This document shows, piece by piece, positions 35,090 to 39,099 of a stretch of DNA of 45,930 nt; positions within the stretch are counted from its first letter, which is position 1; every line of letters starts with the position of its first letter. The stretch lies in the IMG/VR virus record IMGVR_UViG_3300013306_000784, positions 1-45,930 of that record; one strand, given 5' to 3'. This DNA is from a virus. The notes beneath the pieces are model-generated. The model was not told the DNA's origin and searched no databases. It saw only the letters and a list, made by a program, of their open reading frames with translations. Both the position numbers and the translations under genes were made by a program.

Positions 35090-35143
35090 GGGGACTGCTC
35101 TCTTCTAATCTGGCTTCAACGGATTGGCGGACAGGGATGTCGC

Positions 35144-35359
35144 TTAGGCGGCCATCTCGGCCCAAGGAAACGACGGACACAGCTTTTCTTTTTTGAAAGC
35201 ACCTTCGGTCAGCGCCTCCGCTCGTTTGGCAATAACCGGAGACATGCCGTGCTTCCCCCGAACCCAACCGGAAACGGTGCTTTGATCAACCTTGAGCTTT
35301 TCGGCGGTGGCCTCCTGGGTGCCGAAGTAGTCAACGAGGCCCTTGTAAATTGCGTTCAT
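35144..35359 (-). CDS. cro: Cro-like repressor (YdaS type)
   Basis: A 71-residue protein from ATG 35359, with GGAGGGG upstream. The helix-turn-helix TQEATAEKLKVDQSTVSGWV (residues ~13-32) is of the YdaS/Cro type, followed by RGKHGMSPVIAKRAEALTEG. It is the first gene of the rightward-equivalent early operon (minus strand) and faces cI across the operator region, as in lambda. It should bind the same operators to shut off cI and moderate early transcription. The open frame to 35533 runs into the operators and cI and is not used. Confidence 0.85.
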   Translation of the reverse strand: MNAIYKGLVDYFGTQEATAEKLKVDQSTVSGWVRGKHGMSPVIAKRAEALTEGAFKKEKLCPSFPWAEMAA

Positions 35360-35370
35360 GATGCCCCTCC

Positions 35371-35437
35371 ATACGGGAATTCCCATATAGTAGATTACGG
35401 GAATACCGATTTGCAACCATATGGGCGCTCCCGTAAT
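35371..35437. promoter_or_regulatory. OR: three repressor operators
   Basis: Three copies of a TAYGGGAnnTCCCRTA-like site: ATACGGGAATTCCCATAT (35371-35388), TTACGGGAATACCGAT (35395-35410) and ATATGGGCGCTCCCGTAAT (35419-35437). The centres are 24 bp apart, so all three lie on similar faces of the helix. The same motif occurs twice more at 38230-38273. This is a three-site switch like lambda OR. Confidence 0.88.
35387..35416 (-). promoter_or_regulatory. PR promoter for cro
   Basis: On the minus strand, -35 TTGCAA (35416-35411) and -10 TACTAT (35392-35387) stand 18 bp apart. The -10 overlaps the left operator and the spacer contains the middle operator, so repressor binding would block it. Confidence 0.75.
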
Positions 35438-35439
35438 AC
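35411..35439 (+). promoter_or_regulatory. PRM promoter for the cI operon, leaderless
   Basis: -35 TTGCAA (35411-35416) and -10 TAATAC (35434-35439) with a 17-bp spacer. TTGCAA is its own reverse complement and also serves PR. Transcription would start at about 35446-35447, on the cI ATG itself, so the message may be leaderless as in lambda PRM. The GGAGG directly touching the ATG is too close to be a normal ribosome site. The right operator covers the -10. Confidence 0.68.
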
Positions 35440-35446
35440 TTGGAGG

Positions 35447-35986
35447 ATGGAATTCAAAGACCGTCTGAAGGCAGCCAGAAAACACGCGAAGCTCAATCAG
35501 GGCGAACTCGCGATCCTTGCTGGCATCACCCAAACATCGATATCAGACCTAGAACGTGGAAAATCAAAGGGAACGTCCTTTGCCGCGCAGATAGCAGCTA
35601 TCTGTAACGTTTCGACCATGTGGCTCGTAACCGGCAAGGGAAAGATGCTCGACGAATCAGTTGCGGTGGATGAGTTCATGTCCACCAGAGACAGGCTCGA
35701 CCGTAACCTACTGGGTCTATCCGACTTAACGCTGGTTGACCATGGCGATGCGCAGGTAGAAAGGCATGCTGCCGATCTCGCAATGTTGGCGAGTCCTCGA
35801 TCACAAGCTGCCCTGAAGAGAATTGTTGAAGCCGCTGGGTCTGGGCGCCTGACCGAAGCGGATGTTGTACTGCTTGAAAAGATCGCCGAGCGTATCGCCG
35901 GCAAACCTGTGACTACTAAGGAAGGGGCGAACGCCCGGATCGCAAGGAAGATCAAGAATGCCCCTCAAGATTCTGACCGAAGATGA
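35447..35986 (+). CDS. cI: CI-like repressor without a cleavage domain
   Basis: A 179-residue repressor. The N-terminal XRE-type helix-turn-helix is GELAILAGITQTSISDLERG (residues ~20-39), preceded by MEFKDRLKAARKHAKLNQ, a standard CI opening. Residues ~80-179 are helical and charged (RSQAALKRIVEAAGSGRLTE, VVLLEKIAERIAGK) and show no S24/LexA peptidase motifs (no A-G cleavage site, no Ser/Lys dyad), so RecA-driven self-cleavage is not expected. The gene starts at the edge of the operators and overlaps the HipA-like kinase by 29 bp. The layout also recalls HipB-HipA pairs. Confidence 0.85.
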   Translation: MEFKDRLKAARKHAKLNQGELAILAGITQTSISDLERGKSKGTSFAAQIAAICNVSTMWLVTGKGKMLDESVAVDEFMSTRDRLDRNLLGLSDLTLVDHGDAQVERHAADLAMLASPRSQAALKRIVEAAGSGRLTEADVVLLEKIAERIAGKPVTTKEGANARIARKIKNAPQDSDRR

Positions 35987-36797
35987 CTACCACGGCTCCG
36001 CTCCTGGGGCAGTAGTTACCGACGGTATCCTCGCTCACACCCACATTGCTTTGCTGGAGACGGTCCGTGACCAGGCTCCAGTTCGTTGCTACGTCAAAAT
36101 GTATCCGGACATGGCGGGCGATCGCGAGCATCGCGGCATAGTCAATGAGATGATCGGACATATCCTTGGGTCAATATTCGGCGTTCAGGTTCCCAAAAAC
36201 GCCGGCCTCATCACTTTGAACGCGGCGCAGTTAACAAATCGCCCTTCGTGGTCAGATGAGGATAGCGACCTGGTAGGCTGGTGGGTGCAGGACGCGGCAG
36301 CCCCATCCCTCAAGGCTCACTACAGCCTTGAAGGAGTGGAACTGACACCGAGGGCTATTGAAAGACTTGCCCAGGCTCGCGCGGAGCTGGCGAAGAGCGA
36401 CCAAGTCAACATGATCATCGCTTTCGATACCATCATCGCCAACGTCGACAGAAATTTAGGAAATCTCCTACGGATTAAGGCGTCCAAGTACCTTATGATC
36501 GACCACGGGCTCTGCCTTTCCAGCGATGATTGGCTGGCGGAAGAGCTCGATCCGGAGAAGAATTTTGTGAACAAGCTGCACGATTTCATAGGCACGGACG
36601 CCATGTTCCTACCTTTCAGGCACGCTACTATCAGCGCGCACGAGAAGCTGGCCGCTAATATAGAACCAGCGATAGGGGCGTTGCAGGAATGGCTGCCGTA
36701 TGCCATTGATCATCGGGACTGCGCAGCCGTAGAACGATTCATCCGGCGCCGAGCAGATACCGGGACCGCAACCAAACGCATGGGGTTGTTCATATGA
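35958..36797 (+). CDS. HipA-like kinase (HipA_2 type)
   Basis: A 279-residue kinase-fold protein. Visible kinase elements: ATP-binding Lys47 in VRCYVKMYP, helix-C Glu64 in IVNEMIG, the catalytic loop NVDRNLGN (Asp164, Asn169) and the metal-binding IDHG (Asp182), which takes the place of DFG. This matches HipA-type Ser/Thr kinases, and the length fits the short HipA_2 form rather than full HipA (440). AAGGAAG lies upstream of the ATG. It is translated with the CI-like repressor, so it is made in the lysogen. A superinfection-exclusion or dormancy role is inferred. Confidence 0.82.
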   Translation: MPLKILTEDDYHGSAPGAVVTDGILAHTHIALLETVRDQAPVRCYVKMYPDMAGDREHRGIVNEMIGHILGSIFGVQVPKNAGLITLNAAQLTNRPSWSDEDSDLVGWWVQDAAAPSLKAHYSLEGVELTPRAIERLAQARAELAKSDQVNMIIAFDTIIANVDRNLGNLLRIKASKYLMIDHGLCLSSDDWLAEELDPEKNFVNKLHDFIGTDAMFLPFRHATISAHEKLAANIEPAIGALQEWLPYAIDHRDCAAVERFIRRRADTGTATKRMGLFI

Positions 36798-37711
36798 GCA
36801 GCAACTCGAGATTAATCCTGAATCTGTCAACTGGAACTGGCAAGACCAGCACAGCTATACGGAACCCCGTGCGCGGAAAATGGCTTAACATTCGATTAAA
36901 GCCAGATATATTTTCCGGAGAACTGTTCAATATCGGCGTTGGCTTTATCGATAATAATGGCACCCTACACAGCCAATTTACCGATGACTTGAGCCGTCTC
37001 CAATGCCTGTTCGATGACAGGATTGATTTACAGGAAATGGCATTCATCGTTGATCTTGCAGCATCCCAATACGATAGAGCCGCATTCGACGAAATAAAAG
37101 ATAAGACAATAAGCCCACAGATAATACTGGGAGAACCATCATACGCTTCTGGAAAGACTATAGGATCTATATTAAATCAGTTTTATGATGAGACAATTTC
37201 CCTAAAACCATTCGGCGAAGACTCCAAAACAAGAAGGCCTCGATTTGCTAGTTCTAGTACAGAATCTGTGCGATCTGAGGTTTTCAATTGGCTAAGACTC
37301 CAGCATCCATTGTTAGCGAAGGAAATAATACCATCCAACTCTCAGTTTGTGATTCAGACCAGTGACAATGGGGTCCAGCAAAGGCATACCGTAGAGCTGC
37401 CGCTGCGGGCACCAGGTAGGGCCGCCGGCACAATAGTTTCTGCGAATTGCAAGACAGCACCAACGGCTGAATTACGAATACTACAAGCAGCGATGAACAT
37501 TCATACTGCGGTGAGGCATTTGGAGGGAGAGGATTGCGGTCTTTTCATTCTGCGCCCTGGCGATAACTCGGCTCTTCCAAGATCAACACTTGATAGATTT
37601 GATGACTTGATCGATGAGAGCGTTTGGAAGTTGCGTGATGCTGGTGTTTACGTTGGAGTTGAAGACTCAATAGAAGGTCTGGGGAAAGAGATCGTAGGCT
37701 GGGCGGCGTAG
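36794..37711 (+). CDS. DUF3037-like partner of the HipA-like kinase
   Basis: A 305-residue protein overlapping the kinase stop by 4 bp (ATGA). The N-terminal part has the pattern PVRGKWLNIRLKPDIFSGEL and FNIGVGFIDNNG...RLQCLFDD, similar to DUF3037, the usual neighbour of HipA_2 kinases ('vrGEfvNvGvvl......rl..lf'). The rest is not recognised. The run STGTGKTSTA near the N-terminus looks like a P-loop but lacks the first Gly. The gene is more AT-rich than the phage core. It may regulate or direct the kinase. Confidence 0.55.
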   Translation: MSSNSRLILNLSTGTGKTSTAIRNPVRGKWLNIRLKPDIFSGELFNIGVGFIDNNGTLHSQFTDDLSRLQCLFDDRIDLQEMAFIVDLAASQYDRAAFDEIKDKTISPQIILGEPSYASGKTIGSILNQFYDETISLKPFGEDSKTRRPRFASSSTESVRSEVFNWLRLQHPLLAKEIIPSNSQFVIQTSDNGVQQRHTVELPLRAPGRAAGTIVSANCKTAPTAELRILQAAMNIHTAVRHLEGEDCGLFILRPGDNSALPRSTLDRFDDLIDESVWKLRDAGVYVGVEDSIEGLGKEIVGWAA

Positions 37712-37735
37712 AGCTTAATATATCGGAAAGGACGC

Positions 37736-38158
37736 ATGAAAATATTCGGGTTGCTGCTGTTACTAATTTTTACCGGCCTGTGCTATATCGTAGGAAGTAA
37801 CGGAAGTGACTCGAATACCATAGGGAAAATAGCCTCTATAGTTTTATTTCCCTGTGCAATTTCTGTGTATTTTTATCCGTCCATATGCGCCGTAAATGAA
37901 CACCCCAAAGTCACGCCCATATTTGCAATCAATCTGCTCTCAGGATGGACATTCATTGGGTGGATGGTTGCCTTCATCTGGGCGCTAAACAAACCGGACG
38001 CCACGCAAAGCTCCACTGAAAGCCCTTCCTCCACCGATCTGCATCATGCCTACGATAACGGCCAAGGTGGGGAGGTAGATATAAAGGTTTGCCCATATTG
38101 CGCAGAAACCATCAAGGCTGCGGCTGTGAAATGCCGATACTGCGGCTCCGAGCTGTAG
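37736..38158 (+). CDS. Superinfection immunity membrane protein with zinc ribbon
   Basis: A 140-residue protein. The N-terminal hydrophobic helix (KIFGLLLLLIFTGLCYIVG) is followed by a second hydrophobic segment (~32-50) and by the Imm_superinfect block TPIFAINLLSGWTFIGWMVA (residues ~59-78), related to T4 Imm. A Ser/Thr linker leads to a C-terminal zinc ribbon, CPYCAETIK...CRYCGSEL (two Cys-x2-Cys pairs). GGAAAGG precedes the ATG. T4 Imm blocks DNA entry of superinfecting phages; the same role is likely here. It is the last gene before the terminator of the cI operon. Confidence 0.85.
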   Translation: MKIFGLLLLLIFTGLCYIVGSNGSDSNTIGKIASIVLFPCAISVYFYPSICAVNEHPKVTPIFAINLLSGWTFIGWMVAFIWALNKPDATQSSTESPSSTDLHHAYDNGQGGEVDIKVCPYCAETIKAAAVKCRYCGSEL

Positions 38159-38190
38159 AACCCGCCAAACCTAGTCGCCCCCCCCCTAGA

Positions 38191-38215
38191 AGCCCGCCAA
38201 GCGCGGGCTTTTTTT
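38191..38215 (+). terminator. Terminator of the cI immunity operon
   Basis: Stem AGCCCGC / GCGGGCT with a 5-nt loop, followed by seven T on the plus strand, 33 bp after the Imm-like stop codon. It separates the immunity operon from PL. Confidence 0.9.
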
Positions 38216-38229
38216 GCCCACCTTAAAAA

Positions 38230-38274
38230 ATATGGGAACTCCCATTGACAACCAAATACGGGAACTCCTATATT
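38230..38274 (+). promoter_or_regulatory. PL promoter with two repressor operators (OL)
   Basis: -35 TTGACA (38245-38250) and -10 TATATT (38269-38274) are 18 bp apart, near consensus. Two operators of the OR type overlap it: ATATGGGAACTCCCATT (38230-38246) over the -35 and ATACGGGAACTCCTATAT (38256-38273) over the spacer and -10. Repressor bound here would silence the left early operon; the centre spacing is 26 bp. Confidence 0.9.
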
Positions 38275-38601: not shown

Positions 38602-39099
38602 ATGAAGCTTGCAGAATTGGAAAGACAGCGAATCAGCCTGAACACGCTGATCGGCGAAGAAAACGATCGACACAAGAAGCAACTATCCGGCCTGAACAAA
38701 GACCTAGCGGAAACGAACCGGCTGATCTCCGCGTCCGCCGACGGCATTGACCTTGATGCGTTGAAGCTTGCCGAGTCGGTGCTTGAGGTTCGTGGCTCCT
38801 ACGACAAGGCCGGCGACGACAGGGCTTTCGCACTTCAAAAGGCTGTCGATGATCTGGCGAACGGCGCAACAAACCTGAAAAAGGCATACGTCGGCACCAA
38901 GCAATACGCTCAGTGGCACGGGCAGTTCGTTGAATGCAGCTACGGCATGGGGCCATCCCATGGCAGCGTGATCTTCTCCATCGGCATCCGCCGAAGCGAG
39001 CTCGGCCGGGATCTTTCGGAAAGCGAAATCGAAGCATCCCTGTACTACCTGCGCAATCTACAGCGCATCCAAGCGGCATCCGTACAAACAGCCGCCTGA
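38602..39099 (+). CDS. Unknown early protein, first clear gene of the PL operon
   Basis: A 165-residue protein from ATG 38602 (MKLAELERQRISLNTLIGEE...), with AGGGG upstream; the frame opens earlier at 38503 without a ribosome site. Residues ~1-50 form a charged coiled coil. The middle (LKKAYVGTKQYAQWHGQFVE) and the C-terminus (SESEIEASLYYLRNLQRIQA) are helical. No signal peptide or membrane segment. I recognise no family. Confidence 0.7.
   Translation: MKLAELERQRISLNTLIGEENDRHKKQLSGLNKDLAETNRLISASADGIDLDALKLAESVLEVRGSYDKAGDDRAFALQKAVDDLANGATNLKKAYVGTKQYAQWHGQFVECSYGMGPSHGSVIFSIGIRRSELGRDLSESEIEASLYYLRNLQRIQAASVQTAA

What the first reader, a model, noticed from the sequence alone, without database searches (positions are those of the whole stretch)
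35447..38158. Lysogenic operon built from CI, a HipA-like kinase, a DUF3037-like protein and an Imm-type membrane protein
Four genes are read from PRM, with overlaps between the first three, and end at a strong terminator. A HipA_2-type kinase with all catalytic residues sits directly behind the phage repressor, and the operon ends with a T4-Imm-like protein. It looks like an immunity island in which the repressor, a kinase-based exclusion or dormancy module and a DNA-entry block are made together in the lysogen. The first two genes also have the layout of HipB-HipA. I know of no described phage system with this combination.
Basis: partly seen in the sequence, partly recalled or inferred. Interest (0 to 1): 0.88.

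Follow-up and report, generated by a model that had tools for sequence, protein, structure and literature searches.

The report
Phage repressor operon with HipA-like kinase
In this Pseudomonas-type temperate phage the gene for the repressor that keeps the virus dormant is translationally coupled to a HipA-like kinase and a probable antitoxin; in relatives the end of the repressor follows the kinase type while its DNA-binding head is freely swapped, so the repressor is probably a working part of a kinase-based toxin-antitoxin or phage-defence unit.

Summary
The operon is real. CI (35447-35986, 179 aa, no S24 peptidase), a HipA-like/PI3K-fold kinase (35958-36797), a DUF3037-like protein (36794-37711) and an Imm-domain membrane protein (37736-38158) lie between three D3-type operators beside cro and two more on a promoter at 38245. 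This is the rexAB position of a lambda-like immunity region. Kinase + DUF3037 is a known two-gene defence/toxin-antitoxin architecture (PDC-M66, DS-6/HipAD, retron-Sda1 operon), although the PADLOC models see this pair only weakly. The Imm-like gene is private to this phage.

Comparison adds something I found in no paper. The C-terminal tail of CI ([ST]PR[ST]...L..I..AA..GRL[ST][ED].D..LL..IA) occurs in phages with at least nine unrelated HTH heads, and 26 of 26 tail loci from one scan have the kinase directly downstream. In natural chimeras the tail follows the kinase class, not the HTH (83% HTH, 23% kinase; or 27% HTH, 71% kinase).

Best reading: a tripartite HipA-type module whose third component is the phage repressor itself. 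The effect on defence or induction is untested. S24-type CI in front of the same pair, and standalone pairs, show that the tail is not indispensable.

The parts
35144..35361 (-). Divergent Cro-like repressor (ORF reads from the ATG near 35361)
   Evidence: P22_Cro/YdaS-type HTH near cut-off and PHROG 35 repressor 3.4e-13; cro plus the start of cI 86% identical in DNA to phage PseuP_222 over 35116-35627
35371..35434 (.). OR-like region: three CI operators, ATACGGGAATTCCCAT (35371), TTACGGGAATACCGAT (35395), ATATGGGCGCTCCCGT (35419), 24-nt spacing
   Evidence: same 24-nt spacing and similar sequence as the three annotated operators of phage D3
35447..35986 (+). CI-type repressor, 179 aa: D3-type HTH head (residues 1-~67) plus kinase-linked tail (residues ~108-179); no S24 peptidase
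   Evidence: HTH 61-74% to CI of D3, F10, JBD44, PseuP_222, match ends at residue 63-82; tail
35769..35986 (+). Part of cI encoding the tail AADLAMLASPRSQAALKRIVEAAGSGRLTEADVVLLEKIAERIAG...
   Evidence: tail alignment A5; 26/26 tail loci of viral contigs carry the kinase next door
35958..36797 (+). HipA-like kinase with PI3K/PI4K-type fold; invariant K47, E64, D164, N169, D182
   Evidence: (PDC-M66A 2.6e-5)
36794..37711 (+). DUF3037-like protein, probable neutraliser of the kinase
   Evidence: (PHROG 14695 1.3e-30); role inferred from PMC12548924 and PMC13092281
37736..38158 (+). Accessory membrane protein with Imm_superinfect domain and UPF0547 zinc ribbon
   Evidence: PF14373 5.5e-13; absent from all other trio loci
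38190..38215 (+). Intrinsic terminator-like hairpin and T run
38230..38274 (+). OL-like region: two CI operators (38230 ATATGGGAACTCCCAT, 38256 ATACGGGAACTCCTAT) on promoter TTGACA-18-TATATT (38245-38274)

Best explanation
This is the immunity region of a lambda-like phage in which the rexAB position holds a HipA-type kinase module, and the repressor has become part of that module. Shown by sequence: CI is a D3-type HTH head joined to a short tail instead of an S24 peptidase. The tail tracks the class of the downstream kinase while the HTH is freely exchanged. cI, kinase and DUF3037-like genes overlap and are flanked by CI operators on both sides. Inferred: in the lysogen all four genes are made from PRM. 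The kinase is a toxin/effector held inactive by the DUF3037-like protein, and CI contacts the complex through its tail, so DNA binding, kinase control and stoichiometry are coupled as in the tripartite HipBST systems. Infection by another phage disturbs the complex and the freed kinase phosphorylates a host (or phage) target, so that the infection aborts. CI should not be cleaved by RecA. The Imm-like protein is an independent accessory exclusion gene.
For: Operators on both sides and the D3 comparison. In D14P a different operator-like repeat also flanks the trio. Trio conserved in unrelated phages. Tail: 26/26 loci with the kinase adjacent. Median identities over 22 loci are HTH 20%, kinase 29%, tail core 61%; tail and kinase similarity correlate (Mantel 0.30, p about 0.001), HTH and kinase do not (-0.002). 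The result holds for 11 loci found without the tail pattern (HTH 20%, kinase 43%, tail core 61%). Natural chimeras: L104/L105 HTH 83%, tail 42%, kinase 23%; L105/L056 HTH 30%, tail 60%, kinase 56%; L106/L107 HTH 27%, tail 58%, kinase 71%. Published: deletion of the HipA-like kinase abolishes defence and deletion of DUF3037 is toxic (PMC12548924, read); a catalytic mutant of DS-6A loses defence and a DS-6A/DS-6B complex is predicted (PMC13092281, read).
Against: The tail lies next to the kinase on the DNA, so co-inheritance could partly be linkage. The same kinase + DUF3037 pair also follows S24-type CI (L026/L039: kinase 70% and DUF 79% identical to D14P; also L014, L017, L018, L042, L084) and stands alone on chromosomes and 3.5-kb plasmids. 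Weak tail relatives exist in short repressors without a kinase nearby (L072-L075). In retron-Sda1 the HTH gene was not needed for defence. No physical interaction, toxicity or defence was tested. PADLOC models match only weakly.
Confidence: 0.55

Rival explanations
1. Ordinary rexAB-position cargo: a two-gene HipAD-like toxin-antitoxin/defence pair plus an Imm-like gene are simply co-transcribed with cI. CI is only the phage repressor and its tail is a generic dimerisation element that hitch-hikes by linkage.
For: S24-type CI before the same pair; standalone pairs; weak tail relatives without kinase; HTH dispensable in the Sda1 operon (PMC12548924); a RexAB-type system downstream of CI is known in a P. 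putida prophage (PMC12894663).
Against: The tail core is better conserved than the kinase itself and switches with kinase class under a nearly identical HTH. Tail matches in 50,697 phage records are limited to the one trio phage. 26/26 linkage across very diverged loci.
Confidence: 0.27
2. The kinase pair is the lysogeny switch: with no S24 domain CI cannot be cleaved, and the kinase, held by DUF3037, phosphorylates CI (conserved [ST]PR[ST] and GRL[ST] residues) to inactivate or tune it.
For: The tail replaces S24 in a CI whose HTH is otherwise D3/PseuP_222-like. Three tail positions were always Ser or Thr in 22 loci; L105 has Lys at the last one.
Against: Published relatives act in defence and as toxins, not in induction. 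S24 CI with the same kinase pair exists. No phosphorylation data.
Confidence: 0.1
3. HipBA-like: CI is the antitoxin (HipB) and neutralises the kinase; DUF3037 has another role, such as a phage sensor.
For: Gene order HTH then kinase with overlap, and the kinase-tracking tail.
Against: DUF3037 deletion alone is toxic in the Sda1 operon although its HTH gene is present (PMC12548924). Kinase loci without an HTH still carry the DUF3037-like third gene.
Confidence: 0.08

Closest known systems
PDC-M66 / DS-6 (HipAD), HipA-like kinase + DUF3037 defence pair
   Same: Same two-gene order and same remote families (PDC-M66A 2.6e-5 for the kinase); kinase required and DUF3037 protein predicted to bind it in published work (PMC13092281)
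   Different: Sequence only remotely similar (PDC-M66B 0.023); no DUF1829 detected in the third gene; embedded in the cI operon with a dedicated CI tail
Retron-Sda1 operon (HTH, HipA-like, DUF3037, retron RT)
   Same: HTH + HipA-like + DUF3037 in one operon; kinase needed for defence, DUF3037 deletion toxic (PMC12548924)
   Different: The HTH there is dispensable for defence and is not described as a phage immunity repressor; no retron was seen here
HipBST of E. coli O127 and Legionella
   Same: Three-gene HipA-family toxin-antitoxin system with a separate DNA-binding partner that is not the main antitoxin (PMC8262856)
   Different: Gene order (HTH, antitoxin, kinase) and antitoxin family differ; kinase only distantly related (best fold matches are PI3K/PI4K)
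Lambda RexAB and RexABpp of P. putida prophage P1
   Same: Exclusion genes transcribed with cI inside the immunity region (PMC12894663)
   Different: Unrelated proteins; no repressor tail known to be linked to the effector
Phage D3 immunity region
   Same: Same HTH class, cro, three operators with 24-nt spacing
   Different: D3 CI has an S24 domain and no kinase pair downstream
T4 Imm
   Same: PF14373 domain in a small membrane protein
   Different: Adds a zinc ribbon; only the 42-residue domain is shared; function untested

Membership tests
HipAD / PDC-M66 | HipA-like kinase gene with catalytic residues | tested here: met
   PDC-M66A 2.6e-5, HipA_2 below cut-off; invariant K47, E64, D164, N169, D182
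HipAD / PDC-M66 | Adjacent DUF3037 protein | tested here: inconclusive
   DUF3037 15.9 bits against cut-off 22.6; PDC-M66B 0.023; the N-terminal W..I...PD..(T/S)GE..N(V/I)GV signature is present
HipAD / PDC-M66 | DUF1829 C-terminal domain in the partner, as in DS-6B | tested here: not met
   No DUF1829 at E 0.1
HipAD / PDC-M66 | Kinase-dependent antiphage activity | not testable with these tools
   needs plaque assays
HipBA | HipA kinase of the HipA family proper | tested here: not met
   Pfam gives weak HipA_2 and PI3_PI4_kinase only; no HipA among the 50 best fold matches listed
HipBA | Upstream HTH protein is the antitoxin | not testable with these tools
   Only layout and tail co-inheritance seen
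HipBST-like tripartite system (works like) | DNA-binding partner plus separate antitoxin plus kinase | tested here: inconclusive
   Three genes conserved together; binding not tested
RexAB | RexA/RexB homology | tested here: not met
   Pfam, PHROG and PADLOC hits are to other families
RexAB position (immunity-region exclusion operon) | Genes between cI and OL/PL, co-directional with cI | tested here: met
   Operators at 35371-35434 and 38230-38271, promoter 38245-38274
LexA/CI-type SOS-cleavable repressor | Peptidase_S24 domain | tested here: not met
   Absent in window CI; present in D3, PseuP_222 and L026 CI
T4 Imm superinfection immunity | PF14373 domain in a membrane protein | tested here: met
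   5.5e-13; DNA-entry block not testable

The most novel reading that the evidence does not exclude
A class of temperate-phage repressors has replaced the RecA-cleavable S24 domain by an adaptor that binds, or is phosphorylated by, a co-encoded HipA-like kinase. The kinase/DUF3037 pair would then control both superinfection defence and the decision to leave lysogeny, and the adaptor can be plugged onto any HTH head.
Probability: 0.25. Interest if true: 0.85.

Novelty: new variant of a known kind. Interest (0 to 1): 0.62.

Why it matters
It links two fields: phage immunity repressors and kinase toxin-antitoxin defence. If the repressor itself is a subunit of the defence complex, loss or exchange of immunity and release of a toxic kinase would be mechanically coupled, which is a simple way to make a prophage costly to lose and an infected lysogen hard to take over. 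It also points to lysogens whose repressor cannot be cleaved by RecA, so how they are induced is open and directly testable. The modular tail gives a search handle (GRL[ST][ED].D) for such operons, which the defence models tried here barely see.

Tried and rejected
Single-protein scan of viral contigs with the kinase found nothing; alignments were needed. The genome search by genus of the window was not possible for a virus record. PDB sequence searches gave no useful relative of DUF3037 or of the tail. The DUF3037 model (pLDDT 86.7, pTM 0.53) had no significant PDB match. Loci that seemed to lack DUF3037 turned out to carry a divergent third gene (W....EP...SGER...V.A) in the same place, so 'tail + kinase only' was dropped. 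Phage CBW1004C-Prop1 and Klebsiella phages matched CI beyond the HTH only by alignment running into S24-type or unrelated sequence, with no kinase pair annotated downstream. Papers combining HipA, CI repressor and superinfection: none held; the original HipAD paper (PMID 40409266) is not held, so the position of HipAD in E. coli prophages could not be checked.

Full report
OBSERVATION. Four co-directional genes are present as described: a CI-type repressor (35447-35986), a kinase (35958-36797, 29-nt overlap), a DUF3037-like gene (36794-37711, 4-nt overlap) and a small Imm-domain membrane protein (37736-38158), followed by a terminator-like hairpin. The family assignments of kinase and DUF3037 protein are right in kind but weak: both lie below the Pfam cut-offs, and the PADLOC models PDC-M66A and PDC-M66B give 2.6e-5 and 0.023. 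The kinase keeps K47, E64, D164, N169 and D182 in all 32 aligned relatives. It folds confidently (pLDDT 89.8) into a PI3K/PI4K-like kinase, the superfamily to which HipA-type kinases belong (my knowledge).

PLACE IN THE PHAGE. Sixteen-base operator-like sites lie at 35371, 35395 and 35419, between cro and cI, and again at 38230 and 38256 on a near-consensus promoter (TTGACA, 18 nt, TATATT). A 12-base core search with up to two mismatches found 11 matches against 3.5 expected, with the best ones at these places. Phage D3 has three annotated operators with the same 24-nt spacing and similar sequence, and the first 67 residues of the window CI are 63% identical to D3 CI and 74% to PseuP_222 CI over 73 residues. 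The region is therefore a lambda-like immunity region, and kinase, DUF3037 and Imm-like genes sit where lambda has rexAB. In D14P, whose HTH is unrelated, a different operator-like repeat (ACCATCGGT/ACCGATGGT) also occurs on both sides of the trio, and a related early gene follows.

WHAT IS CONSERVED. The trio HTH-kinase-DUF3037 occurs in Pseudomonas phage D14P and relatives, Moraxella phages Mcat18 and Mcat22, many IMG/VR contigs and genomes of Pseudomonas, Stutzerimonas and Azotobacter. It is rare: 7 of 400 Pseudomonas species genomes have a kinase hit. The Imm-like gene is in none of the other trio loci, so it is accessory.

THE TAIL. The window CI has no S24 peptidase. Its C-terminus shares a motif, [ST]PR[ST]...L..I..AA..GRL[ST][ED].D..LL..IA, with the other short CI proteins. 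A scan of 2.9 million viral contigs for the motif gave 26 confirmed loci, all with the kinase directly downstream and usually overlapping. Several of the 26 are near-identical; 22 distinct loci (including the window and some found by other searches) were used for statistics. Their HTH heads fall into at least nine groups. Median pairwise identity is 20% for HTH, 29% for kinase and 61% for the 33-residue tail core. Tail and kinase similarity are correlated (Mantel r 0.30, p about 0.001), HTH and kinase are not (r -0.002). The motif search favours conserved tails, but the 11 loci found only through kinase or DUF3037 give the same picture (HTH 20%, kinase 43%, tail core 61%).

Natural chimeras make the point without statistics. 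L104 and L105 share 83% of the HTH but have kinases 23% and third genes 19% identical, and their tails differ (42%) and match those of their own kinase class (L105 tail is 60% identical to L056, whose HTH is 30%). L106 and L107 have HTHs 27% but tails 58%, kinases 71% and third genes 60% identical. Tail, kinase and third gene therefore move as one cassette under exchangeable DNA-binding heads.

LIMITS. The tail is adjacent to the kinase on the DNA, so linkage is part of the explanation. The kinase + DUF3037 pair does not need it: L026/L039 carry a D14P-like pair (70 and 79%) behind a CI with S24, as do L014, L017, L018, L042 and L084 with their own pairs, and pairs without HTH occur on chromosomes (L034, L085-L087) and as almost the only cargo of small plasmids of E. 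coli and Klebsiella, with the kinase also on Salmonella and Raoultella plasmids. Weak relatives of the tail occur in short repressors without kinase nearby (L072-L075).

MECHANISM. From the literature: in the retron-Sda1 operon the HipA-like kinase is required for defence against Bas51, deletion of DUF3037 is toxic, and the HTH gene is dispensable (PMC12548924). In DS-6 (HipAD) a catalytic mutation abolishes defence, and kinase and DUF3037/DUF1829 protein are predicted to bind each other (PMC13092281). By homology of architecture, the window kinase is most likely a toxin or effector kept inactive by the DUF3037-like protein. What is new here is that the phage repressor carries a kinase-class-specific tail, which I read as contact with that complex, similar in logic to the tripartite HipBST systems, where the HTH partner is not the main antitoxin (PMC8262856). 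Shown: gene order, overlaps, operators, tail-kinase co-inheritance. Inferred: PRM expression, toxicity, neutralisation, tail contact, defence, lack of SOS cleavage. The alternative that the kinase modulates CI, and so induction, is open: the S/T residues of the tail are strongly conserved (one exception, L105).

VERDICT. A real, conserved lysogenic kinase operon; the pair is known, the coupling to the immunity repressor through a dedicated tail is, as far as I could check, undescribed. New variant of a known kind.

Noticed in passing
L110 (NZ_AP027872.1), L111 (NZ_AP022531.1), hits H28-H34: 3.5-4.7 kb non-mobilizable plasmids of E. coli, Salmonella, Klebsiella and Raoultella carry a related HipA-like kinase gene; in the two opened, a DUF3037-like gene follows and the pair is almost the only cargo.
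   Followed up: partly
L106:2880-5186 and L107:2957-5215: A third class of trio in Pseudomonas genomes with a longer, different repressor tail (about 100 aa, conserved between unrelated HTH heads), HipA_2 kinase above cut-off and a divergent third gene.
   Followed up: partly
L030:4080-4260: Kinase gene of a Moraxella-type trio appears frameshifted near its start; L031-L033 keep only a truncated DUF3037 gene without kinase.
   Followed up: no
L072:1183-1707: Repressor with a degenerate version of the tail and no kinase within the 1.4 kb seen downstream; may be a derivative that lost the cassette.
   Followed up: no
window 38602-39099: First gene behind the OL-like promoter (PHROG 13608, 1.1e-71, unknown function); the DNA at its start is shared with many P. 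aeruginosa phages.
   Followed up: no
window 38180-38190: Run of about nine C just before the terminator hairpin; possible slippage or assembly-sensitive site.
   Followed up: no
L092:4654-5427 (BK070131.1): A DUF1828 gene lies two genes downstream of the CI-like repressor of a Helicobacter pametensis prophage, another possible immunity-region cargo.
   Followed up: no
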